Below, piece after piece: positions 31,001 through 50,897 of a DNA stretch of 51,142 bases. The stretch's first letter is position 1. The number at the start of each line of letters is the position of its first letter. The position numbers were made by a program, and so were the translations under genes. A model generated the notes under the pieces. It was not told the origin of the DNA and searched no databases. It saw only the letters and a list, made by a program, of their open reading frames with translations. The DNA comes from a virus, in IMG/VR virus record IMGVR_UViG_3300032083_001792, positions 1-51,142 of that record; one strand, given 5' to 3'.

Positions 31001-31135
31001 TCTGTAGAAAACGATGAGACAGTTGTTCGTAAGGATTACAGTGTACAACCACGGTTCAGTCAAGCCTTACATCCAAAAGGACATAAAGGGGATGTCTCCT
31101 ACAACTCAACAGACCACAGTGGTGATGGCGCATGA
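13031..31135 (+). CDS. Giant 6034-residue putative tail adhesin
   Basis: A single uninterrupted frame of 18.1 kb. ATG 13031 follows GAGGTG. Residues about 8-220 are a LamG/concanavalin A-like lectin domain (FFFDGVTDSILIP, DSFVIEAWVVPDCGG, VFLYVNGHVVATQEI), a sugar-binding fold. Five copies of a STAxLxxGMxVxGTGI domain lie at about 1568, 2462, 3128, 3680 and 5760. TGGGAGGTTLTGC-type modules occur near 5090. The rest is Thr/Ser/Asn/Gly-rich beta structure with no membrane segment or signal peptide. It follows the tail-tip gene, so it is probably the host-recognition fibre or tip complex. It could be cut after translation or folded around the tail tip; neither is visible. Confidence 0.75.
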   Translation: MVGIGRTSNAFFFDGVTDSILIPQGNFTSVGPARDILGKTSRGADEFTHINSIMDDSFVIEAWVVPDCGGIVAHRDEQFTLEFGTVDTPGPAKFTVQLKTRSGMNAVSLSTAKATSTRWDGVVYPPQEVGGIHDTYNRYLKDNTAYNDATNLNFKHRGLYHVVAGVTAGSVFLYVNGHVVATQEIDIESRIADSTAHVYIGGKGGEFRGAIEAIHFNSEFDSQMAVSTVPVNSDTTKGMYRFEEPLDIVEESYDFNAFTVAADGTTTTITVAATDAQALIARLTGKPYDSTSATTTFTATPYSMGNYKVTDFATTPGTEATLAIPHTPYNILINPGSINRNTEKPNASPPERARIESINGSTGVITVSSIHIDFNISGGKRGLLHSRTADIDNYFVVVNADLLIDNGTGKPYQPPHYGSQIFDKTGQMVIDESNFSQHALVYSTQMATTDNSPSNPFAVSWPSTLDVLYQVGHSGRHRYSHITGHEYMRRYPQPAYLSIDQIMGGTADVVEMGYDSNTKGIADLFAMNALSDFYEESTQVTVANFINSTPATFVVSNGLAESKEQAIAIGGTNFDYRPFMLKGPVPEFEGDINDDTRLYHLRPESVSRIALLKVPTLQTTHDLAPYVEIHYNAIDLTGVSMNKTTPCLMIEKTVPSGNFVLTGSTTVLDVIEADLADATKDTTLFAPGGLIMTGNSQTTTTHHLETEHSLIGDNTGGYELDSEVDFSRCPVNYTPPSNATTDGNTTPQYLTASHNNGVHDSAYHKLCIEPNADNSVKNMTEIGLQSIKPAAVTNTGTGVFDEGSTSDASNNFEMFDIIDNVVYNTHEYSGIIFVQPSDRTRTNQLSKMRTNQTEGNSPSIASLLYLMSRTRIRSIKEDEDPGTNEKTVTVLATGIAEGLANQNVNITGSGSPDSHIVKEIEPNAPVVTVTLGGPGQGAINTKPTYDPSPLMRLPGSTRRSCAVRTISVNADASRKYISVQPINNLSTDMASWGTYCFPKVGRVYLEDGSSAAYTQKTGSGFVFSNTDAITNRTYLDANGVAYASLRAWLNGVNLINNANEDEYPLSTVFYNDPHFADENLCDDGSTVNDRMFQSMDTVNHDYQLGTQYASTRAMVEIPIFPKQFFDHAPTGIFPGPDNSMKIHLDATYTAHSWNPTPVGRRANDIAVSDRNAHSAYGFNANSNDHVSSATITQIVTYTTHTDLYVSHPKLFPSAESAENEHRNMKDVTRYRRVFLSNNQWGIYQNDPATDGYIRIPTSFSTAPTPDTFDGGFSEDFFADATVGALVYVAGGYRNETLVPIASDVTTPSSDLENRSPYYHDPANMQTQGGNLDYGLRQYVSAVEFKEGPLTNPHAPRIESKTASATIIDASQAFGLLTITVDDSSNFPDIPWTRDASNGISFATGDMIYSAEIIQGDTITEVFYYGNIDFLRPNTILCVISDGSTLTNLVGATLQIKKAGHGIFNEPYLSAASEIDVSTFRPTVSGEIWTFKADVGDIGGATTLSVAPATAYLMPQANTVGMNLRPGDDIYREAAGDATEIDYIGRVAYYESPYAGSGHATNTVITLETFTLASSITASDKTVTVSDTTRLRKGMAITGTGIDTGAVINSITNATTFEMSHNPTSSGTTTPTLTFGANAHAIAVNDKLRIFAGTVLETDPDAVLNRTWLNPYAQGGLRNGDTVWMNMTMNNPHAVEGLFAKSRGVLNQYQVWSGFNGGKGALATRPRDSIPLENFLIGDSCLETANNFVQHVNKTIELNYESMGLSSSQAPTVAYLDPYLATKGHARVLMFDVAHDREFIAFHDLHMQVQSSAATPHIGFGRHIVTATGVTNLDNFIINQNGGAPHYFTTQIDVANGFPSENPFIRRTQQSKFIESAYVHNIAAYNDYSHVTENPTIAGVSVTNNNQHLMGKAHGHYVQTGIMTNDIADSTLPRLEPAVASAYWADRKHKLSKKLLDNQQSPLIRSLKLSRSSNNPATYSLRDSSTLMDTPDGTRAISAFLCLKGIRSQSLLLSNHEESRLQHLDHWSKMDFVRRLTIDFGEVGIKEGVTDIEAAAREIVRLINQGGAKNALTTGAMNADTGSIHDPAPWWFADEAFDSQDRGSHMGYLRAHLGRVVEDLDGNTGHSIVIHSTIPGASGRNFCTWLDNSKGQSQYKPQFLIGHGGRFRNFWCQPDETSGENMHPAPMPINKHGRPFAPITTLREYVTQEDTDDIFISNGDFTSNVGTASAQKRSLSAYNGSGAIANTINDESFESQSPSKTLVEGLRTGSQAVGRINFGGMVAAGIPGFAPDAGVWGLGERGNTDFDTRYSNAITTGDTAPTAITNYSDHVNASQVENVGDGQLYGFQFEDHRGNNYGLRFIYRKMGDNFTNDNTALPPTLGNEICVYFDDRDVGQGGLTIGNHMLGLGDVTGRIDTTGVLTEASYRGNRWNGVPSPSVGIDASVTLTTTQMTVVLHSPFDAGFTDATCVLTNTDATVTMTSTAKLVAGMGVTGTNIPASTTVSSITNATTFELSANATGGDGSATSTLTFSTTGQSVMGNHPDVLGYLGFPKTNGLLQINDTFTGTTAKGEVGHTFSYTHRTQENNDGTHIFYGVAGDTFTSSHSVANTAVGTEITNTAVAQPGNNSMRVLLSPRINWTTLVTDELMAAVTAAAINHEDPNRVLNFDCREMYAADGRTYGQWGVAPDAIKIRAHTPSRNTLPLSQMFEATLHKDWGIQAAHLEYGEYTKLHETETGWAVTSTDTINKPYSDAELDAHRRMDVGYLPYTVLQIRSKGRGFNANTATPVLVDSANTPVSVNSWRRNLKGENYTSITGDHILPSLNNPILLFESYTHSGNVFLAKANKIAHAMIPAGQEADALGDAANSNTLAKEGSFGERLIFRYPTATGIGIAELESIRGSVSHTSLTHPYGNGHGSWKAHFYQDIGNDFILTRFTEPNQPGIEREAICGYRSHGSVDSEPIIYFRGARDSIDHSVPLYFGGGFTGVTLDINDGTQNDYSPFYTHPYSGGPTGTAGIQNANEISGSFAMVDCNALLAFFPGTALLNQHRGSINSPVSNKDSILSPDLRGGNLDADFALLNAAADGDGAGGATGDLRARYAAGIVRQQPVPLVLRFAHPTARYHDSQPIVDATCDTNSNTTVTMDSTAQLVVGMTVTGTGILDGATVASITNATTFVLSAAATASNTNTTLTFNYIENKTTYLVYGPGQAFPFTEDDNSNAAVEPHPGYVVTAGNTWSKVPHSMYLPNEITNSDNLYGPQNSTYQAARQRFHWRTTLNWSPPQGIPNVGYLQQRPEHGSHFGEMFVNPVASKLTSSNKVDYRKAHPYKHSAVAYYGIAMSADMTFHMDGGYHPGGSWLDNQISFNAPNPNSNYRYALESWNQVNATAFRVSGAMAKTILEGANNETTLNFDSDYIIVDGTRCQNGEELATIIGQAINENPGKGALKAMGGTFLPSMGNAMRQDRYGWIETNFVSYNNLADDLLGKVFSGEAFDDTTGDVDNSEVHVVATITGATQEELEQIPACGWIRGEKGGRSYTQSTNTLKSIYGIFGCYHSREIWNDSGTYKIKFYLAPNKISGLPLLEDHTTWHNKCESATLTFPTPGFDPGLGATVHTSPTKIYVWSKAGVHRFNNENETPRNHMTQAHFGGLVDAIDRTRPVGAVGWAGERYSYLNSLKVDTTSFTDATCDYNNDPTIGIDSTAKLKIGMLVSGTGIPTSAYVRSITSSVEFELSVSTTGGSVTNGTLTFTTNLYAAGRGAWHPKMGFTPYGSSASCMSVLGHLPSVNPMYNSPEGSSRINAQMTSTSNVKPQYDGGLTTPYTWNIGLVGGDTWYDKFIMAGTEDGGDNQQIIEKPLHIRETETDTSFILNPKLHHQQGVFSRAMLVISNESELALVAKTDRDGITATGDWLSVVSKTRAGVAAATAITFAGTTRWDERFHNAERYIAPANAGPNVEALIATGTATPTADVPSAAYVLHTALTGDQDANLYNAEPCFAVTGDLFFDTDISPGSILLEVTTDVTRNITKELTLDSTDTEIDNYDYIERDGSGDASPDFWLGDTNGYKLSQRTPAQNFSIEHVVWKRMDGGNLSLPAPNARGLGAVPFVTRVAGGNAYTTGEKLYGNNRFTFESTNSAMFPIIQAQELSHPQMASRHPDLLRNILEIPNEEIQFESITVVDDTGQEHTVEGGSPFGTIIRAFTQLSNRSAQGLAPAISGSGVEPNMKIRLPDPDSIPGNLIVRSGFDRLQAYQTETMGTGGMMTKSTVEHMFDNSLVSPNLGPTYSDHNWEHLKQGTDNPESTMSGWQSSTGNAPLETAYELHDRTLFFHVTKMGNTNTHKHPVIYSHSGGVVNHELTGVSFVGTTLTVNTSVNSAVYDSTFGSKERVGERRFLRLYNPTTDEGGVASFTGISGSTFTGCVGDETFNKLVLSSITTLKVVPSYYIPAGSTRFYGSRRIRDHAEVSGNSPDMAHTHYVNYSVTTEEAMTGYSIYKKPQLTPAPIPRMGHHFVNATMAMLPGHWAHPAYQGLYDKHRACRSATLQSDEFTIIGDSYGMDDLITSVPTSFPTYDPLLVFGSLTATPSGPSDIHGGGFSLMFETKLRNDGYGVLASEGDAGVTNSKGGHTIVLEAAGTYTLKEHFPDPAEVGAYQIIIQPNMHSSQFIGYHANGPANDVPNGSVSELTSQQVALVVGIREPDSRYGAYALVLANATMADVRGCEIFVNELMIDHDPDHGSHFTNIPPLMLYNPLGVQATESPAFVRRSLPYYPSMFVDATPGFTTNIPWWSIVHKVGPDNADADRFNHLSWHRLDNYYEFLRASSGSIASQITLAGYPSFYPDLYSEILENISLTPVCTVVSVASTVITVDDARGFPKQPYYGMVLEYTDTTGTRRTHTYTERSGYDSSLMNKPKQFTIVANSTFTDNLTAGTKIRLSRAYDFRPANTILSDSETSIINQTLSQTLAGSRDTNSLHMADAFLCLWHPNLGRPHTFYSDASRTWLNPLTDRAINQKPLNSMPEHFETVHYHDATYYASMGPFALRMKTAMPPTEAQSTYYTATSASVSSTTVTATGTIMAGWPTSGTNTVYVNSGSEEEIFTYTGGGAGGTTLTGCVNVKGTPLTTMASGNHSLRYYKTADLAADGSHTRQVVERTNSTTITTNGGEAIAADSYIIVEGRMYQVNASGVAEGGTSIVVYDTLASEITTGSVIYTGADGTPQTAQTIDTTIGTGLMQGGQSDSSDTATKSMLNHFWPSGSRGGPLVSRLDGYAYVSSTWDYPRDYGFDGPIWSDADDDGSYAVSSGISKSSYDGISNPTRPRPFGYRFGLRQPYNKPQWSMYGLRALRETAVTATNASVGYTHGPLVQTETQTSTYAGGDGSSTSTFPNTYTGIMERQTNFSGMLGVDKPEWQVRYSDGVRFTRPFGCPIRTLRNSSTVLRDWWGDGNGKGLDSIEDAAKYYIVDWWGNTRGEDVRRFPVRSFGIRPSWDAGDAYEYDRRNNRTPYQRIHNNGNHLVNLKGLTNAADTALSISATLPRFGGRLNNTNNNDTNTLVDVFMPSNAQRVGDMGNGRGIRYPTQFNEDVLTALSEPIHTTGLVLSHHTAEPILNDGFIRARNDVLQNTEVPRGISSRLEIAEDGLLKPEAVVSDRMENIIGDSPHKDAVSRSSPRIGLDTENLQGVDTNQIIINTEAHSLHTDRNVGQRVILQGGMQTGSQTIGNYDLTALDFGGQPQGGAVRMSHTSNFNPLGGTYLAETRNFLSPIDDTNWGGFTAICVTANGSSNITMESTAKLVVGMKVVGTGIPDDVAISEITNATTIAIETNATADSPGDGVTLSFTAPAGFSSNPYTTVTFSPAGKRTNVIDKSITYMMRPVRLMDKQHIEMFRSNLNLHASSPQNGSNYFGATAGGKYGLYIYNVENHRATDGETTYMRSGPNTNPPYAPAYSMSIVNSDTRPISKGPKIIGTADSGFDSSKIDNEVTRVIISENTLEHYRSDASRRRTSVENDETVVRKDYSVQPRFSQALHPKGHKGDVSYNSTDHSGDGA
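17735..17934 (+). repeat. Repeat domain copy B
   Basis: Core VSDTTRLRKGMAITGTGID and SITNATTFEMS in the giant protein, residues about 1568-1635. This is the most divergent copy at its start. Confidence 0.7.
20417..20620 (+). repeat. Repeat domain copy C
   Basis: FTDATC start, core TSTAKLVAGMGVTGTNIP and SITNATTFELSANATG, residues about 2462-2530 of the giant protein. Confidence 0.75.
22412..22605 (+). repeat. Repeat domain copy D
   Basis: VDATCDTN start, core DSTAQLVVGMTVTGTGI and SITNATTFVLSAAAT, residues about 3128-3192 of the giant protein. Confidence 0.75.
24068..24270 (+). repeat. Repeat domain copy E
   Basis: FTDATCDYN start, core DSTAKLKIGMLVSGTGIP and SITSSVEFELS, residues about 3680-3747 of the giant protein. 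Confidence 0.75.
30305..30506 (+). repeat. Repeat domain copy F
   Basis: Core ESTAKLVVGMKVVGTGIP and EITNATTIAIETNAT, residues about 5759-5825, near the C-terminus of the giant protein. Confidence 0.75.
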
Positions 31136-34628: not shown

Positions 34629-34707
34629 CGTAACAAGCCTCGCAAAAATCTCCATCAACAAGAACCTTACAAGGTTCATCACAGAATACGCATATGTAAG
34701 TCGTCAT
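34591..34707 (-). CDS. Tiny (38-residue) cysteine-pair protein
   Basis: ATG 34707 overlaps the chaperonin stop (ATGA), a sign of coupled translation. The product starts [20 protein letters not shown] and continues FCEACYDG, giving five cysteines including two CxxC-type pairs: a complete minimal zinc ribbon. It overlaps the next zinc-ribbon gene by 38 bases in another frame. It is below usual gene-calling length. The overlap and motif support it; expression is inference. Confidence 0.6.
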   Translation of the reverse strand: MTTYICVFCDEPCKVLVDGDFCEACYDGAVNREVESKV

Positions 34708-36215
34708 TGAGGTGGCCTTCGTGCTATTATATCGTCAATACGGAGTATTGAATTAGTGACTTCGCTGGCACTTAGTACTGCTTGACGAACCAGTTCTGTA
34801 GGCTCGTAAACACCAAGTTCCATCATGTTACATACACCGCCGTTGTGTACATCCGGCCCGATTTCACGGTTGCCCTGTAGGATTTCGTGGCGAATAGCAA
34901 GTACGGTGTCGAGTGGGTCATGCCCTGCATTCTCGGCAATAGTGGCAGGAATACACTCTAATGCGTCTGCAAAGGCTTCTATCGCCATCTGCGCTCTACC
35001 ACCTATCTGTGCCGCATGTTGGCGTAGGTGAGCCGACATACGAGCGTATGCGTTTCCACCACCAACAACAAAGTTACCGTTCTTTAATACTAAAGAAACT
35101 ACTCCAAGGGCATCATCAAACCCACGCTCAACTTCTTCAAGCGTGTGAGATGTTGCACCCCTTAGCACGAGTGTTGCCTCATCGCTCTTGACATCACCTT
35201 GAACAAAGAGATACCAAACATCGTTGTGCTTCTGTCGCTCTACGATACATTCTGTGTGTCTTTCTACCTCTTCGGGTGTTTGATAGATAGTAGCACCTGT
35301 AACTCTACTCAATGAGCGAAGTGTGGATTCGGGTACTCTACGAGCGACCATGATATTATGCTTCTTGAGGTGAGCGCATACATGGTCGTTGACCGCATCA
35401 CGAACAAAAACAATACCACCTTTCGGTAATACTTTCACAAGTAATTTAGCCGTTGAGATGAGGTTTGCTTTACCCGACGATTTGTATGATTGGAATGATT
35501 GAGCATCAAGTTGTACCTGTACATTGTCTTCACTCTTTTCATTCTCAAGTCCAGTATTCAACAACACTACATTAGAGTAAGCATCGTCACCTTCAAGCAC
35601 ATAGTCCTTGTTTACAATCGAACCTTCGTAAAGGTAGGAGTCATCAAGCGAACCACCGGGGAATGATACAACCTTGACGCTTTCAGCATCACCGGCTTTT
35701 TCGACAGCGGCTACGCAAAGTTCAGCAACAGCGTTAAGTGAGTTCTCAAGTGCTTTACCAGTGATAGCAGTTTTAGCCACCGATACCAGTACATCACGCT
35801 TATCACTTGTCAGTGATATATTGGTACGAAGGTATTCAATAGCCATTTGAGATGCCTCATGATAACCACGGCAAATTACATTAGGGTGCAATCCTTTCTC
35901 AAACAGCGTTTCACTGTTACCGAGCAGTTGACCTGCAAGAATGACAGTACTCGTTGTACCGTCATAGCACAGGTTTTCTTGAGTCTTCGCTACTTCAACA
36001 ATCATTTTACCACCGGGGTGTGATACATCAAGTTCACGCAGGATAGTAGCACCATCGTTTGTAACGATAACACCACCTCCACCGTCAACCATCAGTTTGT
36101 CCATTCCCATAGGGCCAAGCGTTGATTTGACGGTATCTGCTACCGTCTTCGCCGCCCGTATGTTGTGTATCTGTGCTTTACTTTTCGTACTTTCAATCTC
36201 CGTCATATCTACCAT
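34704..36215 (-). CDS. Group II chaperonin (thermosome/CCT-like)
   Basis: A 503-residue member of the archaeal/eukaryotic chaperonin family, which folds proteins in a two-ring ATP-driven cage with a built-in lid. Visible motifs: [15 protein letters not shown] and [12 protein letters not shown] near the N-terminus; [12 protein letters not shown] (usually GDGTT); [20 protein letters not shown] with the catalytic-type Asp; [15 protein letters not shown]; and [20 protein letters not shown] then [11 protein letters not shown] at the end. It is slightly shorter than the usual 540 residues. The start is ATG 36215, or ATG 36206 (MTEIEST); the upstream exonuclease overlaps it by 7 bases. A viral chaperonin is a known trait of magroviruses, probably for capsid or replication proteins. 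Confidence 0.95.
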
Positions 36216-39232: not shown

Positions 39233-40324
39233 TCACTCCATATCGCCGGTTTCATCGTAGTATTTACACTTACCCACACAGAAACCCTCTTGGTAAAGTG
39301 TAGCACAGGTAGCATGTGGATAACCAGCCATCACTATACTGCGTACTTGTTCTTCTGTCTTCTCTTGTCGGTAGTCAACCCATCCTTGGCCCGATATGAT
39401 TTTTGAAATCATACCTACATGCTTTTCTTTCTCTTCGTTTGCTATGCGCCAAGCGGGAAAAAACATGCGAAGCCTGTCGGCTAAGTAAGAGGCAAGGTGA
39501 AACCTCGCCCTGTGAGTGGGATTGCCGCCACCCATAGCCGCTTGAGATAAGCAGGGTAGTATGTGTAGGTCATCCAATGATACGGTCGGTATATCCACCG
39601 TCTTGATATGACCCATTGTCATAATTTTACTTTGTATAACATTTAATTTAACAGGTAACTTACCTAAAGGGATGTAACCGTTGTGTGGTTCTTGACCTTT
39701 ATCCATCAAATCATCATACGATAGATTGAGTATGTCTTCACTGTTCAAAGGAAACGACCAAACTTCTCGCTTGGCATTGTACGAATTAGGTATGCGAATC
39801 ATACCACTCGTGTCGAAAGCAACAGCAGGGTCGTTGCACCTTAACCCTCCCAGTTTCTTTTCCCATTCATTGATGAGTAGTTTACCGGAGTGCTTTATGC
39901 GTGAAAGTTCTGCACCGTTCTTTGGTTCTAATGTTTCATCAAGCGGAATCCAAACATGAAAACCACCACCGCTGAACCATATGTAATGAAGTGTCTCTTT
40001 ATCCATCAATAAGCGATGTAGTTTCTTTACCTCACTGTGTGGTATTTTAAACGGTAAGTCTCTTCCTTTATCCTTGAAATCCTTACAGTCAAAGTCCAAT
40101 ACGAAGTGGTGTATTTTAGGTGTGTTGTAATCCACCCTGTGGTGCTTGGGTGCTTGGGTTTCATTGTAACCATAAGCAGTAAAGTAAACATTACCACTCC
40201 CGTTCTTACCCGACCAGTAGCGTTCCAACTCGGATTCGTTCTTGACGAGTCTTCGCCAACCACGCTCACCGCTACTCGGTAATTCAAGGACTTCACGAGG
40301 GAAGTCTATGGGTATAAATCCCAT
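39233..40324 (-). CDS. Archaeal-type primase: PriS catalytic domain fused to PriL-like Fe-S domain
   Basis: A 363-residue primase. Residues 1-190 have the archaeo-eukaryotic primase motifs: VLDFDC (D77, D79), WFSGGGFHVW (H123) and FDTSGMIRIPNSYNAKRE (D171, R177, K185). Residues about 250-355 carry four cysteines (C258, C340, C349, C353) around HRARFHLASYLAD, the layout of the PriL C-terminal domain that holds a [4Fe-4S] cluster. Archaeal hosts normally use two separate subunits, so this is a compact fusion. It makes primers for the neighbouring PolB. ATG 40324 follows GGTGATAGT. Confidence 0.85.
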   Translation of the reverse strand: MGFIPIDFPREVLELPSSGERGWRRLVKNESELERYWSGKNGSGNVYFTAYGYNETQAPKHHRVDYNTPKIHHFVLDFDCKDFKDKGRDLPFKIPHSEVKKLHRLLMDKETLHYIWFSGGGFHVWIPLDETLEPKNGAELSRIKHSGKLLINEWEKKLGGLRCNDPAVAFDTSGMIRIPNSYNAKREVWSFPLNSEDILNLSYDDLMDKGQEPHNGYIPLGKLPVKLNVIQSKIMTMGHIKTVDIPTVSLDDLHILPCLSQAAMGGGNPTHRARFHLASYLADRLRMFFPAWRIANEEKEKHVGMISKIISGQGWVDYRQEKTEEQVRSIVMAGYPHATCATLYQEGFCVGKCKYYDETGDME

Positions 40325-40328
40325 ACTA

Positions 40329-40637
40329 TCACCGATGCTCGTGTAGGTAAATGTCGAGGTCTTTCATCAAATCGTCTATCAAAGCGTTGAGATTATTGGC
40401 TCGCATGTGTGACGGGTGTACAGTGTAAGTAATCGTCTTAGGGTGTCTGTATTGAGCCTCACCGTCTATATCAGTAAACTCATCAAGAGTTGTCTGTCGT
40501 ACAACATCACGCAAGTATTTCTTACGACCTGCACCAGTTGACTTCTGTACTTTCACTACATAGTTGAAACTACCTACTTTTTCATTCATCATTCTTTCTA
40601 TTAACATAATTATTTCAATCATTCTTTTCATCCTCAT
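40329..40637 (-). CDS. Small protein with PCNA-interacting (PIP) box
   Basis: Up to 102 residues. QTTLDEF (residues 48-54) fits the PIP-box pattern QxxLxxF that docks proteins on the sliding clamp. The rest has a basic middle (GAGRKKYLRDVVR) and an acidic helical C-terminus (LNALIDDLMKDLDIYL). The start overlaps the Cas4-like stop (ATGA); later ATGs at 40622 or 40589 are possible. No enzyme motif is seen. It might recruit the primase or nuclease next to it to PCNA. Confidence 0.55.
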   Translation of the reverse strand: MRMKRMIEIIMLIERMMNEKVGSFNYVVKVQKSTGAGRKKYLRDVVRQTTLDEFTDIDGEAQYRHPKTITYTVHPSHMRANNLNALIDDLMKDLDIYLHEHR

Positions 40638-41656
40638 TTATTTTTTTCTTCATTCGTATTATCCAAATATGTGTCCATATCCCAAAACTCGCAATGGGCT
40701 TTGTAACTACACCAGTTGCATTTCAGTTTTTGTTCCTCTAAAGGTAAACCTTCTACCAGCCTACCCAAATACGGTGTGGGTGGAAACTCCATGTTTATGT
40801 GTGCTTCAAGTAGGCGCACTAATCCTTTCTCTATACTCTTGGATGAGTACTTACCACCTTTCTTGGTGTCTTCATAGAATACTGTAGGCCCGTCGCCACC
40901 GTTAATACCACCGCCGGGGAACTCCCATCCCCAATGGGTGATAGGGAGGAACTCGTGATGGGGGCTGTGTTCAAGCATCATTTTGTAAAACTGCATTTCT
41001 TTACGCATAGAGCCGGGTTTGCTCTTATTGTACTTACCAGTCTTCAACTCCATGAGAGCGAAGCCATCATCGTCAGCGAACAGTCCGTCAATAAAACCGT
41101 TCATGTGAATAGGAATGTGTACACCATCTACTTCAACGAAGCGTGTGGCCTGTATGTTTGCTTCAATAGCGACAGGTCGCCACTGATTGCCGTTGGTGAT
41201 AACCAAGCGGTTGAATTGCCATTTCATCCACTGTGCTATTTGTTCATCCTCACCGAACTCATATGGTTCGGGAGGGGATGGTATAGCACTGTTGAACAAC
41301 TTTTCAGCCTCAAGTAAATCACCTTCATCAATTAACTTTAACACTGATTTTTCTTGTTCGTCGGTGAAGTTTTCCCAAAACCACTCCATCATGTCGTGAA
41401 CATTTAGCCCCCGTATGTGGTGGTCCACTGTCTCTCCACGCATACCTAAGAACTTCTCAATGTAGTATTGCTGTGGACACCAGCCGAATGTGCCGTAACT
41501 TGACTTGGTAACTCGTAGGATTTTACTTTCATCCTCATTCGGATTCCAAGCGTAGGTGCTACTCTTGTACGAGTCAGCCTCCAATTGGTTGCCGGTAGCC
41601 TCAAGGTAATCGTCAATGCGTGGGCGACTATCATCACCAGTAGGATTCCATCTCAT
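40634..41656 (-). CDS. Cas4/RecB-family PD-(D/E)XK nuclease with Fe-S cysteines
   Basis: A 340-residue nuclease. GLNVHDMM (H87), MNGFIDGLF (D190), ALMELKTGK (E203, K205) and MQFYKMML (Q222) are the RecB-type motifs. Four cysteines, one early (C60 in FGWCPQQY) and three late (C313, C316, C322 in CNWCSYKAHC), match the [4Fe-4S] layout of Cas4/AddB proteins. Such enzymes trim DNA ends or cut single strands. No Cas1 or CRISPR array is present, so a viral recombination, replication or counter-defence role fits better than adaptation. It overlaps both neighbours by 4 bases. Confidence 0.85.
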   Translation of the reverse strand: MRWNPTGDDSRPRIDDYLEATGNQLEADSYKSSTYAWNPNEDESKILRVTKSSYGTFGWCPQQYYIEKFLGMRGETVDHHIRGLNVHDMMEWFWENFTDEQEKSVLKLIDEGDLLEAEKLFNSAIPSPPEPYEFGEDEQIAQWMKWQFNRLVITNGNQWRPVAIEANIQATRFVEVDGVHIPIHMNGFIDGLFADDDGFALMELKTGKYNKSKPGSMRKEMQFYKMMLEHSPHHEFLPITHWGWEFPGGGINGGDGPTVFYEDTKKGGKYSSKSIEKGLVRLLEAHINMEFPPTPYLGRLVEGLPLEEQKLKCNWCSYKAHCEFWDMDTYLDNTNEEKNK

Positions 41657-41841
41657 TCTTTCATCTCCATTTCAATTAGTTTCTGTAGGTACACGGCCAA
41701 GTCCATCGCTTCTTCTTGAGCATGAACAAGCCATTCAAGACGAGAGAGTGGTGCGGTTTCCATTGTAACCCCGTACTTACTCTTTCCTACTTCTGCTCGC
41801 TGTGCAATTTTCTTGCATACTTCGTCTTCGATTCTACTCAT
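41653..41841 (-). CDS. MazG-like small protein
   Basis: A 62-residue helical protein (RAEVGKSKYGVTMETAPL, EWLVHAQEEAMDLAVYLQKL). The pattern of KYG followed by a helix with EExxD resembles short phage MazG-like/NTP pyrophosphohydrolase-related proteins, with QEEAMD as the likely metal-binding helix. Family MazG enzymes break down nucleotides; this short form may be a partial or dimeric version. ATG 41841 follows GGGGAATTGAA; the upstream extension to 41862 overlaps the GHKL gene. Confidence 0.6.
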   Translation of the reverse strand: MSRIEDEVCKKIAQRAEVGKSKYGVTMETAPLSRLEWLVHAQEEAMDLAVYLQKLIEMEMKE

Positions 41842-41842
41842 T

Positions 41843-43294
41843 TCAATTCCCCACATCAACATAAGTTGTCAATACAGTTTTGTGTTGTGCGCTTGATTCC
41901 TCCCAGTATTGGATATTAAAGTCACCAAGTAAAGGTTGCCAATGTTCATCGAATTGTTTCTTAGCATTAGCCAGCACATTCTTGGCAAAGACTACACCAT
42001 GAGTAGCACCTACTGTAACCATGTACCCTACGAGTTGATTCATGTCTTGAGCATTGAAGTTTCCTTTCTTAACTTCAAAAACATAAAAAGAATCACCACT
42101 ATTAGCGGTGACATCCATACTAAGGTTGGTATCTGTTGATTCTTCTGTCTTAACATCACACCAAATGGCATCACCGTTTGGTAATACCTGCGCTTTGAGG
42201 TAGTCAGCGAGTCCGTCACGAATAAGCGACTCGCTAAGACTATCGTAATCATCATCATTTTCGGGTGGATTAAAGAATGATGTAATTTTTGCTTCTTTAA
42301 TTGCCTCGGATATACTCTTTTTTAATTCATACCATTCATCAGTTTGTTGTATGTTGTCTTTCTTTGGTGTCGTAGCCAAATGCCCTTCTTTTATTACCAA
42401 TTGTCCTACAAGACCATTGAGAGAGGTGTGATTCTTTGCTCTCCAAACTGTCATTGGTTCATATACACGATGCATTATCACTCGGCTATTTTGTACAACA
42501 TCAATACCACCGCCATAACTTTGCCTCGCCCATACACCCTCATGTTCTTCGGGACTCATACCTATGGTGAGTTCAGCAACTATGTTTTGAGTTGTTATAT
42601 CAGTTTTGAGTAAGTGTACATTAGTCAGCGTAGTAGGATGAAAGTATGGTGGGAATATCGCTTTTACTGTTACTGTAGTGGGCTTTCCTTTTGCGTCTTG
42701 AATGATTTCATTGTTTTCCAAGTTTACCTCGTTAATCACTATAACTCCACCATCGTTAATAAAATTAGCATAACGAATACCCAAAGAATCTCTTAGGTTA
42801 TTGACCCGCTTCGCCGCAAATACATTTAGTAATACATTCATTACTATTTTCGTTCCGGTAGTGGTAGGGATAGGTAAACTATCATCAATGTGAAGGTTGT
42901 TACCTTGATACCCGGTTATTGCATAAGAGTCCACTCCGTCATATGAGCGTATAATGTCAAGTCCTTGTGAAATATCTGTATCACCAAAGTAAGCGATAGC
43001 ACTTTTCATACCTACTCCATGCTCATGAATACCTTGATTGGTTCTCGCACCGACACTCAAAGCAACAGCCGCTTCGGAGAGTGAAATACCGTCACCATCA
43101 TCCACAACTGATATTTTTTTGATGCTTCTTTGTCCATGATTCTCAACCAATAAATTGATTGAAATATTATTCGCTGTCACTATAGCGTTGTCCACTAATT
43201 CATGTAACGCCGAAGTGAATGTAAATCCACTCTTAGACATAGTATTAGCCATCAGTTCGTTATTGCTTTCCATTTGTATTATTTTTCTTACCAT
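41843..43294 (-). CDS. GHKL (MORC/MutL-like) ATPase fused to PD-(D/E)XK nuclease-like domain
   Basis: A 483-residue protein. Residues 1-160 are a GHKL ATPase with all four boxes: LHELVDNAI (E32, N36), VVDDGDGIS, HEHGVGMKSA and TTTGTKIV. Residues about 180-335 look like the S5 fold of GHL ATPases, with GGGIDVVQNSRVIMHR and HLATTPKKDNIQQTDEWY as in MORC/MutL/Hsp90 proteins. Residues about 380-450 resemble a PD-(D/E)XK nuclease: D401, YVFEVKKG (E407, K409) and DMNQLVGYM (Q420). ATP-driven dimer closure could thus control DNA cutting. MORC-like ATPases with nuclease domains are known in restriction-like systems. ATG 43294 follows GGTGATAAT. It lies between PolB and a Cas4-like nuclease, so replication, recombination or inter-virus defence are all possible. 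Confidence 0.8.
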   Translation of the reverse strand: MVRKIIQMESNNELMANTMSKSGFTFTSALHELVDNAIVTANNISINLLVENHGQRSIKKISVVDDGDGISLSEAAVALSVGARTNQGIHEHGVGMKSAIAYFGDTDISQGLDIIRSYDGVDSYAITGYQGNNLHIDDSLPIPTTTGTKIVMNVLLNVFAAKRVNNLRDSLGIRYANFINDGGVIVINEVNLENNEIIQDAKGKPTTVTVKAIFPPYFHPTTLTNVHLLKTDITTQNIVAELTIGMSPEEHEGVWARQSYGGGIDVVQNSRVIMHRVYEPMTVWRAKNHTSLNGLVGQLVIKEGHLATTPKKDNIQQTDEWYELKKSISEAIKEAKITSFFNPPENDDDYDSLSESLIRDGLADYLKAQVLPNGDAIWCDVKTEESTDTNLSMDVTANSGDSFYVFEVKKGNFNAQDMNQLVGYMVTVGATHGVVFAKNVLANAKKQFDEHWQPLLGDFNIQYWEESSAQHKTVLTTYVDVGN

Positions 43295-43298
43295 ATTA

Positions 43299-45692
43299 TC
43301 ACCAGTATTGTTTTAAGACCCGCTTCGCAGTGAGTCGTTCTAAGTCCCAGTCGAGTGTTTCATACACGACCTTGAGTTTTTTTGCTATCCATTTGTCAAC
43401 GCATGTAGTCCAGTCTATATCATACTCATCCAGTTCACTTACCTCATCGTATGCTATCACATTGGTTTGAGGTTGACCCTCCGGTACACCGTTTATGAAT
43501 ACCCACTTAACGCTATCACCTTTATTAAAATCAGTGTTATTGTATTTGTTTGAGTATTGCGCCGCCTTCGCTGTGTTCGGTGTGTGTGATGGGTTGTAGT
43601 CATCTAAGTGCTTTTGAATGCGCCCGTATGCTGATACATCATCCAGTGCGCCACCACCATAGACAGCCTTCACCATTGGTCGGATGTTATCAAACAAATC
43701 ACCTTCATCAGCCCCATTGCATATGAGTGTGAATGCCTCACGCTGTACACGCTTACTCAAAGGTGGTGCATTAGCCGCCTTCATAGCAAAGCCTGTCACC
43801 TTCATCTCACCCTTGTCTTCGGGAGGGTATGACTTGATACCGAAGTTTCGATTCTTGATACCGGCAGTGAACCAGTAAGGGAAAAAGGCTTCAAGTTCTA
43901 CATCGAGATACTTCAAATCCATTTCTTCTTGAGCAATGCGAGTCAACTCACCTGCAACTTCTTCGGCTTCATCGAATGGAACTTGAATGTAACATGAATC
44001 GGTGTGTCCTGCAAGCCCTCGGTAGCCCATCTCTTCACTCTTCTTAACAAGCATACTGATAGACTCTCTACCGAGGTAAGTGATACACTGTGCAATTGGG
44101 TAACTACTCCATTGTCCACCAATTTTCTTAGTACCAGTCATACCATATATGGCATTGACAGCAACCTTGACCGCCATCTGTAACATGTTGTAACCAAGGC
44201 GTATGTCAGCGTCATCAGCCTCACGCATGAGGCGTTTGTACTCCTTACGGAGAGCGAGCATTTGTTTGACGACAGAAGGTAGTATGCCCTCTTTGTCTTG
44301 ATGCCAGTGGAATGTACCACCTGTGAGGGGTATCATGTTACCCTTGTCATCATACTTAGGAGGAACTTTCAGTGTGAGAATATTCTCCCCCGGCCCGTCT
44401 GCAATCGTAGTCCAACATAGGTTGGCGGAGAGTATGATGTTTGGATAGAGTGATGCGAAGTCAACCAGTGCTACATTTTCATGTCGCCCTGCTACCGGAG
44501 GCATAACCCACGCCGCCTGTAGTTCGGGGCGTTCTTGAATGTAAGAAGAGGGTGCTTTGAGGTCAGTGCGCCGACCAATCAACCCTCGGAAGTATCGAGT
44601 GACCTTATGTGTGCTACCGAATGAGACACCCGCCAATTGTTGCATGGCTATGTGATAGGATATACAATTCAACTTCTCATCACAGTCACGCAGTAATGTA
44701 GTGTCAACTAAACAATAGTCAACGAAATCGTCATAGTATTCTCTCCATCCATTGAAGACGGTCATACCTTCAATGTCGTTTGTTAATTTACCACTGAAAC
44801 CAAGTTCAGTAGCGAACCAATCCAACTTGCGAGACTGTGCTTGACCTTTACCGGACTTCTGCCATATACCTTCAAAGCCACTCCCATCAGTCCACTGCGC
44901 CGCAGTATCGAATATCAGTCGCCCCTTGATAGGTTGAGCAGTGGTGCGGTATGAACCAGTCTTTTTGTTTGGTGCAATCACTCTACGGACAGGAGACAAA
45001 CGCTCACGCTCTACACCCAATTGACTGTAGAGATGTGGTAAGTCAGCCCAAGCAATAGCGTGAGCCACCAACATATCGGGGTTACACTCTTCAAGGTAAG
45101 ACAGGAAACCATCATGCATCTCATGTGCATTCGGATAGGTACGCAACTCATAACCTTCGTAGCGGTCTATCCATTCTGTCTTGCGTATAGTATCTCTTAC
45201 TGAATCCTCACTCCAAGCGAACACTACAGGGTGGTCGCTGAATGTATCGGACACAGCCATCACCGTTGTCGTTTGGTCTTCGGTGTCCCACTCAAGGTCA
45301 AAGTACCATATCCGAGGTTTGAACTCCGGCAACTTATCGGGATAGTTGGTGAGTAGTATTTGGTCGAGGTAATTGAGGTCAGCCTCATATGTCCATACAC
45401 CACACTTCTCTTTGAGTTCCCATAGAGTATTGGGGTGCTGTACAGTTACTTTCACTATTGTTTTACCGTCGAGTCCGGTCGCCTTGATGTTCGGATGAAT
45501 AGTTCCCCTGTGTCCTCTAATGCGATTCATTACATATTGAGGTGCTTCTTCGGCTACCCAAAAGAAAGGCTCAACATAATCGTCATCACCCTTCATGATG
45601 TATCGCTCATGCAATACTCCATCAGCCCCACGAGTACGCTCGTAGATGGTAGGTGGGTCATACGGGTCATCAGTGAACCAATCAATAATCAT
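43299..45692 (-). CDS. polB: Family B DNA polymerase
   Basis: A 797-residue replicative polymerase with 3'-5' exonuclease. Exo I WYFDLEWDTE (D132, E134); exo II region HAIAWADLPHL (D217) with the usual Asn and Phe replaced by Ala; exo III VDYCLVDTT (Y326, D330). Polymerase motif A VDFASLYPNII (D411), motif B VKVAVNAIYGMTG and motif C GHTDSCYI (D565). All catalytic acids are present. The frame is open to 45803, but ATG 45692 (MIIDWFTDD) overlaps the previous stop (ATGA) and gives a normal family length. It is flanked by clamp, membrane protein and GHKL genes. Confidence 0.95.
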   Translation of the reverse strand: MIIDWFTDDPYDPPTIYERTRGADGVLHERYIMKGDDDYVEPFFWVAEEAPQYVMNRIRGHRGTIHPNIKATGLDGKTIVKVTVQHPNTLWELKEKCGVWTYEADLNYLDQILLTNYPDKLPEFKPRIWYFDLEWDTEDQTTTVMAVSDTFSDHPVVFAWSEDSVRDTIRKTEWIDRYEGYELRTYPNAHEMHDGFLSYLEECNPDMLVAHAIAWADLPHLYSQLGVERERLSPVRRVIAPNKKTGSYRTTAQPIKGRLIFDTAAQWTDGSGFEGIWQKSGKGQAQSRKLDWFATELGFSGKLTNDIEGMTVFNGWREYYDDFVDYCLVDTTLLRDCDEKLNCISYHIAMQQLAGVSFGSTHKVTRYFRGLIGRRTDLKAPSSYIQERPELQAAWVMPPVAGRHENVALVDFASLYPNIILSANLCWTTIADGPGENILTLKVPPKYDDKGNMIPLTGGTFHWHQDKEGILPSVVKQMLALRKEYKRLMREADDADIRLGYNMLQMAVKVAVNAIYGMTGTKKIGGQWSSYPIAQCITYLGRESISMLVKKSEEMGYRGLAGHTDSCYIQVPFDEAEEVAGELTRIAQEEMDLKYLDVELEAFFPYWFTAGIKNRNFGIKSYPPEDKGEMKVTGFAMKAANAPPLSKRVQREAFTLICNGADEGDLFDNIRPMVKAVYGGGALDDVSAYGRIQKHLDDYNPSHTPNTAKAAQYSNKYNNTDFNKGDSVKWVFINGVPEGQPQTNVIAYDEVSELDEYDIDWTTCVDKWIAKKLKVVYETLDWDLERLTAKRVLKQYW

Positions 45693-45940
45693 ATACTCAC
45701 ACCCACTAATAATAGTAAAAGAAAAGTTCCACTTAAAACTACAAAGGAAAGAAGTAATACTTTCACAAAATCTAATACTCCTAAGAGATACAACTTCCCC
45801 CATGTCCCTTTTCTTTTGGGTCGCTTCTTCTTTACTTTGTTTGGTATTAGTTTATCCTTATTGATGTAATAATTATTGATGACATCTCCGTTATGAAAAT
45901 CGCCTCCAATAACGCTGTCGTTTAATGTAGGTTTATTCAT
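45689..45940 (-). CDS. Small single-pass membrane protein
   Basis: An 83-residue protein. The N-terminus has a strand-like repeat (NDSVIGGDFHNGDVINNYYI); residues about 33-48 are basic (NKVKKKRPKRKGTWGK); residues about 50-81 are one long hydrophobic helix (VLLLSFVVLSGTFLLLLLVG). The basic patch before the helix predicts the N-terminus in the cytoplasm. It overlaps both the clamp stop (TGATG) and the PolB start (ATGA). A membrane anchor for the replication complex is possible, but a lysis-related role cannot be excluded. Confidence 0.65.
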   Translation of the reverse strand: MNKPTLNDSVIGGDFHNGDVINNYYINKDKLIPNKVKKKRPKRKGTWGKLYLLGVLDFVKVLLLSFVVLSGTFLLLLLVGVSI

Positions 45941-46692
45941 CAGTCATCACCTACATCTACGACCATGAGAAGCGTGGTTACTTGTTCAAAAATTACTATC
46001 GTTCCTCTACCCATGTGCATACGAGCCTCACCGTCATCGAGATAGTTGAGGCAGGTAGGTAGGGCATCGGAGAACATAGAGTCAACAGTAGTAGCAGGGC
46101 CATCAGTGTCCCATACAGGGAGTGTGGTAAACAAACGACCACTCGCCGCCTTACCTGCTACAATACCTACCTCTTCTTCACCGCAGTGAATACGCAACTT
46201 GAAGTCCGTGTCCTTCGCCAGTATGCCACGCATGTTGGCAAATGAAATCAAATCCTTTGTCATCAGTGATGAGTGGGTGGACAAGTTGGAGTTACCAAAC
46301 TTAGCCCACCCACCTTCTTGACACTTCTTTAACAGTGAACGAATTACAACGGCCTTGATTGCTGACTCAATATCATTCGTACTCGGTAGTTGCAACTTGT
46401 TACCACCTGCTTCAATGTGGAGTGGCTTGTGCGTGTCCACTTGCCGCAGTGTTACATTATCCTCCTTTGTCGCTTTCATGAACTTGAGTGCTTTCTCAAG
46501 GTCAGCGATGTGGATAGCCCCTTCTTCTATCACCTGTACGGAAAGGAAATACTTTCGCAAGTAAAACGATGCGTAAGCAACCTCAACCGTTACACGAGAA
46601 CCAGCGCAATCCAACCGTAGGTCGGGTACACCTTTCGTGAAGACAGAAAGGAACGAGAGGAACTCGCTTTTATTCACTGTAATTTTAGTCAT
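45940..46692 (-). CDS. PCNA-like DNA sliding clamp
   Basis: A 250-residue protein with the length and alternating strand pattern of archaeal PCNA. Recognisable parts are NKSEFLSFLSVF at the start, IHIADLEKALKFMKATKED (the 'domain-connecting' style segment) and the end ARMHMGRGTIVIFEQVTTLL. It is divergent from cellular PCNA, so the call also rests on context: PolB, RFC and a PIP-box protein are all nearby. It would ring DNA as a trimer and tether PolB. ATG 46692 follows GAGGTGATATT. Confidence 0.65.
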   Translation of the reverse strand: MTKITVNKSEFLSFLSVFTKGVPDLRLDCAGSRVTVEVAYASFYLRKYFLSVQVIEEGAIHIADLEKALKFMKATKEDNVTLRQVDTHKPLHIEAGGNKLQLPSTNDIESAIKAVVIRSLLKKCQEGGWAKFGNSNLSTHSSLMTKDLISFANMRGILAKDTDFKLRIHCGEEEVGIVAGKAASGRLFTTLPVWDTDGPATTVDSMFSDALPTCLNYLDDGEARMHMGRGTIVIFEQVTTLLMVVDVGDD

Positions 46693-50083: not shown

Positions 50084-50839
50084 TCATATCCACGCCGCTT
50101 TGAACATAACTAAGTTCTTTGATTGATAAAAATTGTATATTTTTGTAAGCATTATACCGTAGTTTGTAGGATTACTTGATGTAATAAGAGATACACCGTG
50201 GTTCTGTTTGAGTTTATTCATCATTCTTGTGTGGTTGTAGTCTTCATGAAAAGCAACATCAGTGTATGCATATATAAATCTCGCACTAAAAGCATAGGGT
50301 AAAAACTCTACCAAATCAGTGAGATAAGTAACGAACAAGTCGCCCCTGTCCTCGTCAGTCATACGCCATTTACCTTCTTTGAAAGCCGTACCTCCAAATG
50401 GTTTTCCGTACATTTTTGCTAATGATGAATATGTTAATTTTTTATCATGTTGAGACATTTTAGATTGAAGTTTCTTGTATGACGCTTTGATAGCAGGGTC
50501 ATTATGCGATGCAAAGAAATCTACAAAATTAGCCATTGTCCAATTTACTTGTATTGTATTCATTTCTACTATTGCATTCATAGCATCCCATCCTATAACA
50601 ATGGCGGGTATGCTTAAATCAAGAGATTTTACCGCTGTCCATCGGTGCTGTCCATCTACAACCATGTATTCTTTATCTCCCTCATATACAGTCATGGATG
50701 ACAATACGCCATATTGTTCCATACTTGCTTTTAATTTATTTACTAAACTACCATTCAAGGGCCGGTTGTAGTCCAACATGATTACAGGCTTCTTCGTCTT
50801 ATTACTCAAGTGTATTACTTTCGCTTTTGTTTTATTCAT
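50084..50839 (-). CDS. ParB-like nuclease-domain protein
   Basis: A 251-residue protein. Residues about 1-95 are a ParB/Srx-type domain: YNRPLNGSLVNKL, then YMVVDGQHRWTAVKSLDL with the conserved GQHR box. The middle (MNTIQVNWTMANFVDFFASH) fits the next conserved ParB-like segment; the C-terminal half is helical and unassigned. ParB-domain proteins bind CTP and DNA or act as nucleases or regulators; no ParA is present, so partition is unlikely. ATG 50839 is preferred. The gene lies exactly between two 56-bp direct repeats, suggesting insertion. Confidence 0.8.
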   Translation of the reverse strand: MNKTKAKVIHLSNKTKKPVIMLDYNRPLNGSLVNKLKASMEQYGVLSSMTVYEGDKEYMVVDGQHRWTAVKSLDLSIPAIVIGWDAMNAIVEMNTIQVNWTMANFVDFFASHNDPAIKASYKKLQSKMSQHDKKLTYSSLAKMYGKPFGGTAFKEGKWRMTDEDRGDLFVTYLTDLVEFLPYAFSARFIYAYTDVAFHEDYNHTRMMNKLKQNHGVSLITSSNPTNYGIMLTKIYNFYQSKNLVMFKAAWI

Positions 50840-50841
50840 AA

Positions 50842-50897
50842 TTCTCAATCCCCATTTCTTTTAGTATTTATATATCATTTGATTCAGTCTATCGAAT
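50842..50897 (-). repeat. 56-bp direct repeat, copy 2 (promoter of ParB-like gene)
   Basis: Identical to 50022-50077. Here the first part is the real coding end of the upstream gene (DSID and stop), followed by TATA box and leader. Confidence 0.9.
50865..50874 (-). promoter_or_regulatory. Archaeal TATA box for ParB-like gene
   Basis: TATATAAATA on the - strand, centred 31 bases before ATG 50839, with the same downstream ACTAAAAGAAA as the other two promoters. Confidence 0.7.

What the first reader, a model, noticed from the sequence alone, without database searches (positions are those of the whole stretch)
41843..43294. GHKL ATPase fused to a PD-(D/E)XK nuclease in a viral replication block
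All four GHKL boxes, an S5-like middle domain with MORC/MutL-style features and a C-terminal D...EVK...Q nuclease-like signature occur in one protein. MORC-like ATPases joined to nuclease domains are known from restriction-like systems, but here the gene sits between PolB and a Cas4-like nuclease in a tailed archaeal virus. It could be an ATP-gated DNA clamp that cuts, acting on host DNA, on rival viruses or in recombination. This is the best candidate for an undescribed system.
Basis: partly seen in the sequence, partly recalled or inferred. Interest (0 to 1): 0.85.

Follow-up and report, generated by a model that had tools for sequence, protein, structure and literature searches.

The report
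Mobile ATPase–nuclease gene in archaeal viruses
A tailed virus, probably of marine archaea, carries a single protein that joins a MORC/MutL-type ATP-driven DNA clamp to a DNA-cutting domain; a bacterial protein of similar plan defends against phages, and here the gene comes and goes as a cassette between closely related viruses, which suggests a weapon used in conflicts over DNA rather than a fixed replication part.

Summary
Window 41843-43294 encodes, on the MINUS strand, a 483-aa GHKL ATPase + S5/transducer + PD-(D/E)XK nuclease fusion. Its catalytic aspartate is D394, not D401. In the nuclease domain E355, D394, E407, K409, Q420 and Y424 are invariant in 24 of 24 sequences, and a profile of the domain finds NucS (E 7.7e-7), EndoMS and Cas4. 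The ATPase module fits MORC structures best (Z about 21, narrowly ahead of GyrB, Hsp90, topo VI) and carries the MORC S5 motif that paraMORCs are said to lack.

The architecture is known in bacteria (paraMORC3; VcSduA/Shedu I-D, a proven phage-defence protein). New is the setting. The gene is not a core replication gene: 10 of 80 PolB-anchored loci carry it (one is the window's own virus). In three pairs of close relatives it is present in one and absent in the other, right after the PolB stop codon. The slot elsewhere carries C5- and N6/N4-methylases, HNH and CoiA-like genes. The protein is under strong purifying selection.

Best reading: a mobile, restriction-like ATP-gated nuclease used in conflict over DNA (confidence 0.5). 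Rivals: recombination/repair factor, homing cassette, rIIA-like counter-defence.

The parts
41843..43294 (-). GHKL ATPase - S5/transducer - PD-(D/E)XK nuclease fusion protein, 483 aa; gene-sized insertion between PolB and p69
   Evidence: empty site in L077/L078
42815..43294 (-). residues 1-160: GHKL ATP-binding domain (E32, D35, N36, D65, G69, G93, G95, K97, G147, T148)
   Evidence: Pfam HATPase_c_3 1.8e-8; invariant columns in 22 sequences
42260..42814 (-). residues 161-345: S5-like/transducer domain with the conserved lysine K312
   Evidence: model m900ebb435761 aligned to MORC2/3/4 over residues ~9-347, Z 20-21.6; K312 invariant in 22
42476..42508 (-). residues 263-273 GIDVVQNSRVI: matches the MORC-defining S5 motif GhXhhpXXRhl
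   Evidence: strict match in 8 of 8 archaeal-virus rows and 1 of 14 other rows of A9; 8 of 5000 shuffles of P0001; motif as printed in PMC2292703
41846..42259 (-). residues 346-483: PD-(D/E)XK nuclease domain, E355 / D394 / E407-x-K409 / Q420-xxx-Y424
   Evidence: six residues invariant in 24 of 24; NucS 7.7e-7, EndoMS 2.2e-4, Cas4 3.1e-4
43299..45692 (-). family B DNA polymerase; left border of the slot. The homologous start is MIIDWF (residue 38 of the 834-aa ORF)
   Evidence: Pfam DNA_pol_B 1.6e-40; start seen in relatives
41653..41862 (-). p69, a small conserved ORF directly downstream (conserved start MSRIED at about 41841); right border of the slot
   Evidence: phrog_11184 4.8e-15, unknown function; conserved start from the alignment
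40634..41656 (-). separate PD-(D/E)XK (PDDEXK_1, Cas4/RecB-like) nuclease downstream of the slot
   Evidence: Pfam PDDEXK_1 4.7e-17; found downstream of PolB in the 80 loci

Best explanation
The gene is a mobile, single-gene, restriction-like effector of the MORC/paraMORC3 kind. The protein probably dimerises through its GHKL domains when it binds ATP and closes a clamp around DNA. ATP binding or hydrolysis then licenses the C-terminal NucS/Cas4-like nuclease to cut branched, ended or otherwise foreign-looking DNA. The virus would use it against DNA that competes with its own replication (a co-infecting virus, or host or plasmid DNA), from an accessory slot behind its polymerase gene, so that it is made at the time of replication. 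Shown here: domain make-up, intact active-site residues, strong selection, optional presence, gene-sized insertion at one point, restriction/modification genes in the same slot of some relatives; movement between lineages is supported for one pair. Inferred: dimer clamp, ATP gating, nuclease polarity, timing, target, benefit to the virus.
For: GHKL and nuclease residues are kept across 18-94% identity, with dN/dS 0.016-0.057 in the eight domain comparisons that gave a value in three informative pairs (some dS values are high, up to 2.62). Accessory pattern: 10 of 80 PolB-anchored loci have it, one being the window's own virus; 7 of 50 PolB clusters (98% identity) contain it and 3 of the 7 are mixed; three occupied/empty pairs share a clean junction after the PolB stop with flanks of 92-98.5% DNA identity. 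Horizontal exchange, window vs L002: GHKL 94% protein identity and dS 1.03, p69 dS 0.71, against PolB 67% and 2.23, with six of the other nine genes saturated and three at 1.75, 2.84 and 4.20. Conflict-type genes in the slot elsewhere: C5-methylase 1.4e-44 and HNH next to the GHKL gene in L104-L106, N6/N4 methylase in L128, CoiA-like in L090/L091/L096. Restriction-type neighbours of some relatives: Priestia plasmid with dcm, PLD-type restriction endonuclease and SNF2; L049 with BglII-like and HNH; L051 with DUF559/MTES_1575 REase. A protein of the same plan, VcSduA, blocks phages in E. coli and in its native host, and its ATPase and nuclease mutants both lose activity (PMC12137116; passages, section 12).
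Against: No biochemistry. The host is uncultured and was not tested. No self/non-self device is visible: 3 of 14 GHKL-positive records (near-copies of one lineage) have a C5 methylase and none of the 14 has an N6_N4 or D12 methylase, so this is not a general restriction-modification pair. Restriction-type neighbours were seen in 2 of 7 relatives scanned and 1 of 3 plasmid relatives, with only one or two neighbours scanned each. The nuclease is not VcSduA's: no PF14082 hit for any of 15 members at E<=1. For the other virus pairs, such as window vs L004 (GHKL dS 2.38, PolB 2.70), dS gives no sign of exchange; there slow protein change suffices. Lying directly behind PolB equally suits a replication-linked role.
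Confidence: 0.5

Rival explanations
1. A recombination or repair factor of the virus: a MutL-like ATP clamp with its own EndoMS/NucS-like nuclease that resolves branched or mismatched replication intermediates, working with the viral polymerase and any viral sliding clamp.
For: Nearest solved nucleases to the C-terminal domain are NucS/EndoMS, which act on mismatched or branched DNA and bind PCNA (function recalled; match). Directly behind PolB in a block with RFC and ERCC4 genes; the ORF at 45940-46692 may be the clamp, a guess from position and recall without a family hit. Its protein is better conserved than PolB (64-94% vs 55-69%, window's own copy left out). Iyer et al. suggest that versions outside restriction contexts may have been recruited for mismatch repair.
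Against: Absent from the slot in 70 of 80 loci with the same block, including viruses with 98% identical PolB, and from the whole records of 46 of those 70; gain or loss among close relatives. A repair gene so easily lost would be unusual.
Confidence: 0.22
2. A homing-type selfish cassette: the nuclease cuts the empty PolB-p69 site in a co-infecting relative, and repair from the donor copies the gene in.
For: Gene-sized insertion at the same point in three pairs, next to a conserved replication gene; patchy presence; exchange signal for window vs L002. In the window virus p69, just downstream, differs more from its empty-site sister L077 (89% DNA, dS 0.48) than most neighbouring genes do (dS 0.06-0.30), which a short downstream exchange tract could explain.
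Against: No upstream tract: the last 900 bases of PolB match the sister at 93-100% per 60 bases right up to the junction, and p69 is no closer to the donor-like L098 than to the sister. p69 is similarly shared with viruses that lack the GHKL gene (L097, 89% DNA). No paper in the library holds 'homing endonuclease' with 'GHKL'. Other, unrelated genes use the same slot.
Confidence: 0.13
3. An rIIA-like counter-defence protein: the GHKL+S5 module is what matters (protecting viral DNA or membranes, or sequestering host defence), with the nuclease as an accessory.
For: Structural matches in viral proteins include many rIIA proteins and GHKL proteins of tailed haloviruses HGTV-1 and HSTV-2; rIIA is named as a poorly understood GHKL counter-defence protein in PMC7824862 (passages).
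Against: GHKL proteins of many kinds share that core, and rIIA is described with a highly variable C-terminus. Here the nuclease is the most constrained domain in two of three informative pairs (dN/dS 0.016 and 0.024; in the third it is 0.026 against 0.017 for S5).
Confidence: 0.1

Closest known systems
paraMORC3 GHKL ATPases (Iyer, Abhiman, Aravind 2008, PMC2292703)
   Same: N-terminal GHKL, S5 domain, C-terminal RecB-like restriction-endonuclease-fold domain with E-D-ExK; sporadic, mobile, a subset standalone. My full-length relatives in Winogradskyella and Psychrobacter fit its stated range (Bacteroidetes, proteobacteria).
   Different: The virus protein carries the strict MORC motif GhXhhpXXRhl, which the paper says paraMORCs lack; carried by an archaeal tailed virus. 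No paraMORC3 reference sequence was compared directly.
VcSduA / Shedu type I-D (PMC12137116)
   Same: GHKL N-terminus, clamp-like middle domain (there a model), C-terminal PD-(D/E)xK nuclease, single-gene system; ATPase and nuclease residues both needed for phage defence.
   Different: VcSduA's nuclease is DUF4263 (SduA_C); ours has no PF14082 match. A bacterial GHKL protein with a partial SduA_C match (L174, 584 aa, E 1.3e-6, profile 3-74 of 159) matches the A9 profile significantly only over its ATPase part (E 4.9e-12) and lacks the MORC motif. VcSduA itself was not fetched.
Prokaryotic and eukaryotic MORC ATPases
   Same: Best structural match of the ATPase module (MORC Z about 20-21.6, 18-20% identity) and the MORC-specific S5 motif.
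   Different: In the text read, bacterial MORCs work with separate helicase and nuclease genes; no fused nuclease is described for them there.
MutL and NucS/EndoMS mismatch endonucleases
   Same: GHKL+S5 clamp as in MutL; nuclease domain closest to NucS/EndoMS.
   Different: Only the ATPase start matches MutL models; only the nuclease part matches NucS; both in one chain; accessory gene.
T4 rIIA and halovirus GHKL proteins
   Same: Virus-encoded GHKL proteins; rIIA thought to be counter-defence.
   Different: Variable C-terminal regions; a PD-(D/E)XK domain in them is not known to me (recalled, not searched).

Membership tests
GHKL ATPase superfamily | four ATP-binding boxes | tested here: met
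   Invariant E32/D35/N36, D65/G69, G93/G95/K97, G147/T148 in 22 sequences; HATPase_c_3 over cut-off
MORC family | S5-domain motif GhXhhpXXRhl that separates MORCs from other GHKL proteins | tested here: met
   GIDVVQNSRVI at 263-273; 8 of 8 archaeal-virus rows; 8 of 5000 shuffles. The motif was also in 7 of 9 other bacterial GHKL proteins looked at (L177-L183; not L174, L192), whose families I did not establish, so its specificity rests on the paper
MORC family | closest to MORC structures in the GHKL+S5 module | tested here: inconclusive
   MORC2/3/4 and SMCHD1 Z 20-21.6 lead, but GyrB 19.9, Hsp90 19.7 and topo VI-B 19.3 lie within about 2. By sequence profile topo VI-B (2.8e-9) is ahead of MORC4 (3e-8)
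paraMORC3 | GHKL + S5 + C-terminal RecB-like RE-fold nuclease with E-D-ExK | tested here: met
   E355, D394, E407xK409 invariant in 24 of 24; NucS/Cas4 profile matches
paraMORC3 | lacks the MORC-specific motif (as stated for paraMORC1-5) | tested here: not met
   strict motif in the virus clade; of the 14 other rows of A9 only L049 has it, most keep a relaxed form
paraMORC3 | groups with reference paraMORC3 sequences in a tree | not tested
   no named reference sequence was at hand
Shedu (SduA) type I-D | DUF4263/SduA_C nuclease (PF14082) | tested here: not met
   no PF14082 hit at E<=1 in P0001 or in any of 15 A4 members (HMMER's filters can drop weak hits); profile comparison with 18 SduA_C proteins weak (E 0.059; controls 0.2-0.68), though it pairs D394/E407/K409 with the Shedu D-ExK
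PD-(D/E)XK, RecB/NucS/Cas4 type | E, D, ExK, QxxxY residues | tested here: met
   (QxxxY as a RecB-type motif is recalled)
PD-(D/E)XK, RecB/NucS/Cas4 type | alpha-beta-beta-beta-alpha-beta core fold | tested here: inconclusive
   strand order of the model fits, but fold searches were filled by the ATPase module and the domain was not folded alone
MutL | MutL family model over its whole length | tested here: not met
   TIGR00585 22.4 bits against a cut-off of 180, residues 27-79 only
Restriction-modification pair | companion DNA methylase | tested here: not met
   C5 methylase in 3 of 14 GHKL-positive records (near-copies of one lineage, L005-L007); no N6_N4 or D12 methylase in the 14; records may be incomplete
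Magrovirales (virus) | PolB, clamp, clamp loader, primase, ERCC4 nuclease, chaperonin; two opposed gene clusters | tested here: inconclusive
   PolB, RFC, ERCC4 and thermosome have family hits; clamp has none and primase only a weak one (PriL E 0.018). Layout agrees with PMC10768690 and PMC10160649; no magrovirus record could be compared

The most novel reading that the evidence does not exclude
A MORC-type ATPase fused to its own nuclease that spreads itself: it drives its own copying into the empty PolB-p69 site of co-infecting archaeal viruses (a homing enzyme built on an ATP-gated clamp) while also destroying rival genomes. That would be a gene-drive weapon of a kind I found no description of, and a living link between MORC chromatin ATPases and nuclease-armed defence proteins.
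Probability: 0.12. Interest if true: 0.87.

Novelty: new variant of a known kind. Interest (0 to 1): 0.62.

Why it matters
A GHKL-nuclease fusion was recently validated as a bacterial phage-defence protein. Finding one as a swappable cassette inside archaeal viruses, in a slot that in relatives also holds methylases and HNH nucleases, suggests that viruses trade such weapons and fight each other or the host with them. The strict MORC motif in a nuclease-armed protein bears on where eukaryotic MORC chromatin ATPases came from. Close virus pairs with and without the gene at the same point give a natural comparison.

Tried and rejected
Core replication gene: rejected after the PolB-anchored survey (10 of 80 loci). 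D401 as catalytic residue: rejected. General restriction-modification pair: not supported. Homing by co-conversion: no upstream tract; downstream p69 inconclusive. Shedu nuclease membership: no PF14082 match; profile comparison too weak to decide. First AlphaFold2 run with 10 close sequences was poor (pLDDT 41) and was not used. Foldseek against PDB and the viral library listed Hsp90, GyrB, topoisomerase and rIIA-type matches and told nothing on the nuclease. First genome-contig scan with the virus family alone found no relative. Phage collection: no match at E 0.01; four weak ones at E up to 10. PADLOC: MzaB weakly, 5 of 22 members. In 249 genomes of the family of the Winogradskyella genome the A9 profile hit GHKL domains in 243, end to end (1-481) only in that genome among the matches listed; one more protein (L177, 510 aa) matches in two pieces up to position 405; at most 6 candidates a genome were scored. 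The PolB tree test does not show that the gene's scatter differs from random (79 of 500 shuffles as low), and it labelled one member per cluster, so two mixed clusters counted as 'none'; repeated gain or loss rests on the mixed clusters and pairs.

Dropped rows and limits: 2 of 80 PolB loci (L136, L152, fragments) were left out of the tree; 19 of 99 PolB matches were not kept by the tool; near-identical contigs count as separate loci in k-of-80 counts (50 clusters at 98%). L003 is the window's virus; L006 and L007 (of L005), L012 (of L002), L013 (of L004) and L014 (of L011) are near-copies. Methylase surveys used 46 of the 62 handles first planned; the whole-record search had no positive control in the same call. 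Alignment A11 holds 21 of the 22 A9 rows (L011 left out) plus three plasmid rows.

Full report
What is there. The 483-aa protein is encoded on the minus strand at 41843-43294. The window is a 51,142-base virus record with head and tail genes on the plus strand and a replication block on the minus strand: RFC small subunit, PolB, ERCC4 nuclease, thermosome (family hits), plus an ORF at 45940-46692 that I take for a sliding clamp by position and recall (no family hit) and a weakly primase-like ORF at 39233-40324 (PriL E 0.018). The major capsid protein is closest to Haloarcula tailed viruses (HCTV-5, 36%). Content and layout resemble the magroviruses of PMC10768690 (whole text read) and PMC10160649 (one passage). 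A marine Poseidoniales host is likely but was not tested.

Domains. Thirteen viral loci encode close homologues, 64-100% identical, several of them near-copies. Distant full-length relatives came from a Priestia megaterium plasmid (tblastn E 1e-10 over residues 15-437; BLASTP 24% identity), a Lactiplantibacillus plasmid and a Ligilactobacillus plasmid, Winogradskyella, Psychrobacter, Pseudobutyrivibrio, an Oscillospiraceae bacterium and other viral-labelled contigs. In the 22-sequence alignment A9 the GHKL boxes, K312, E355, E407, K409, Q420 and Y424 are invariant. D394 is kept in 19 of 22 as aligned there, and in 24 of 24 when the nuclease domain is aligned by itself (21 of those rows plus three plasmid relatives). 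The second AlphaFold2 model (pLDDT 81.8) places the nuclease residues on a helix-strand-strand-strand-helix-strand series. A profile of the domain finds NucS, EndoMS, Cas4 and 4ic1, and nothing else, in the PDB at E<=1. The fold of the nuclease domain was not searched on its own.

MORC side. Residues about 9-347 align best with MORC2, MORC3, MORC4 and SMCHD1, Z 20-21.6, but GyrB, Hsp90 and topo VI follow within about two units, and by sequence profile topo VI-B is ahead of MORC4. The MORC-specific motif GhXhhpXXRhl, as printed by Iyer et al., is met exactly at 263-273 in all 8 archaeal-virus rows of A9 and in 1 of the 14 others; it appeared in 8 of 5000 shuffles. It is also in 7 of 9 other bacterial GHKL proteins that I looked at, and absent from L192 and from L174, a GHKL protein with a partial SduA_C match. 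The same paper says paraMORCs lack the motif. The virus protein thus joins the MORC motif to the paraMORC3 architecture.

Accessory gene. A PolB-anchored scan kept 80 of 99 viral loci. A profile search found the GHKL-nuclease in 10 of 80, one being the window's own virus, L138. All 80 show the downstream nuclease gene after PolB, so the slot itself is covered. A search of whole records for 46 of the 70 negative loci found none elsewhere. After clustering 78 PolB proteins at 98%, 7 of 50 clusters contain the gene and 3 of the 7 also hold members without it. In the tree the window's cluster sits among five other tips that lack the gene, so a recent gain is the simplest reading there; over the whole tree the scatter is not distinguishable from random.

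Insertion point. Window virus (L138) against L077: flanks 96% identical at DNA level on both sides of the gene, which L077 lacks. These two also differ upstream, between the 45940-46692 ORF and PolB. L098 against L097: flanks 94% and 92%. L095 against L096: 98.5% upstream and 97.5% for 285 bases downstream; beyond that L096 carries a CoiA-like gene and then diverges. Each time the GHKL gene follows the PolB stop codon.

Movement and selection. Window against L002: GHKL dN 0.038, dS 1.03; p69 dS 0.71; PolB dS 2.23; of the other nine genes six are saturated and three give 1.75, 2.84 and 4.20. So the gene and p69 share a more recent ancestor than most of these genomes. p69 is also 82-89% identical in DNA to L093 and L097, which lack the GHKL gene, so its sharing is not tied to it; in L004, L005, L008, L009 and L010 it is 57-66% identical. 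For window against L004 dS does not separate GHKL (2.38) from PolB (2.70). By domain, dN/dS is 0.039 / 0.045 / 0.016 (GHKL / S5 / nuclease) for window-L002, saturated / 0.055 / 0.024 for window-L004 and 0.057 / 0.017 / 0.026 for L010-L011; L005-L007 is uninformative.

Slot content. Between PolB and the downstream nuclease other viruses carry a C5 methylase and an HNH gene (L104-L106, beside the GHKL gene), an N6/N4 methylase (L128), CoiA-like genes (L090, L091, L096), a Viral_Rep protein (L119) and many small unknowns. Methylases are rare over whole records: PF00145 in 3 of 46, PF01555 in 5 of 46, PF02086 in 1 of 46; among the 14 GHKL-positive records only the 3 with PF00145. Among relatives outside this virus group, restriction-type neighbours were seen in 2 of 7 scanned and in 1 of 3 plasmids.

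Literature. PMC2292703 (parts 1-3 of 4 read) defines MORC and paraMORC families and proposes DNA looping and restriction roles. PMC12137116 (passages and section 12) shows that VcSduA, a GHKL-DUF4263 protein it links to paraMORC3, restricts phages and needs both activities. PMC7824862 (passages) names rIIA as GHKL counter-defence. Searches for 'Poseidoniales'+'virus'+'MORC' and 'homing endonuclease'+'GHKL' found no paper; 'paraMORC3' gave two, 'Shedu'+'GHKL' two. Magrovirus papers of Philosof 2017 and Prabhu 2025 and the Shedu paper of Gu 2025 were not held, so whether they annotate this gene is unknown.

Judgement. The protein looks functional by the sequence tests made. The pattern of presence, the slot's other contents and the known activity of a bacterial protein of the same plan favour an accessory DNA-conflict nuclease over a core replication enzyme. 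The target is unknown. A repair role and a homing role remain open.

Noticed in passing
window 13031-31135 (+): A single 6034-aa ORF, probably a giant tail or adhesin protein (guess); scanned in three pieces, only a weak Laminin_G_3 match (E 0.0037) in the first third.
   Followed up: partly
L119:8673-9113 (+): A 146-aa protein in the same slot of a relative matches Viral_Rep (PF02407, E 7.1e-17), the replication initiator of small ssDNA viruses (recalled): unexpected in a tailed-virus genome.
   Followed up: no
window 41653-41862 (-): p69 is 82-89% identical in DNA to L002, L093 and L097, whose PolB is only 66-68% identical, with or without the GHKL gene, yet 57-66% in L004, L005 and L008-L010; it may itself be exchanged or serve as a recombination anchor.
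   Followed up: partly
window 34704-36215 (-): Virus-encoded thermosome-type chaperonin (thermosome alpha model E 1.4e-127, beta model over its cut-off) closing the replication block.
   Followed up: no
L133:8312-9109 (+) and L134, L135, L137, L155: A 265-aa gene related to the window ORF 45940-46692 (27% identity, E 6e-29), a guessed sliding clamp, sits downstream of PolB in the same slot.
   Followed up: no
window 43299-45803 (-): The 834-aa PolB ORF is over-extended; homologues start at MIIDWF, residue 38 (base 45692), often just after in-frame stops.
   Followed up: yes
window 50084-50848 (-): ParB-like protein (phrog_12305, E 1.8e-14) in the replication block.
   Followed up: no
L104:10831-12415 (+), also L105, L106: HNH nuclease and C5 cytosine methylase beside a GHKL-nuclease in one virus lineage, the only GHKL-positive lineage of those searched with a methylase.
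   Followed up: yes
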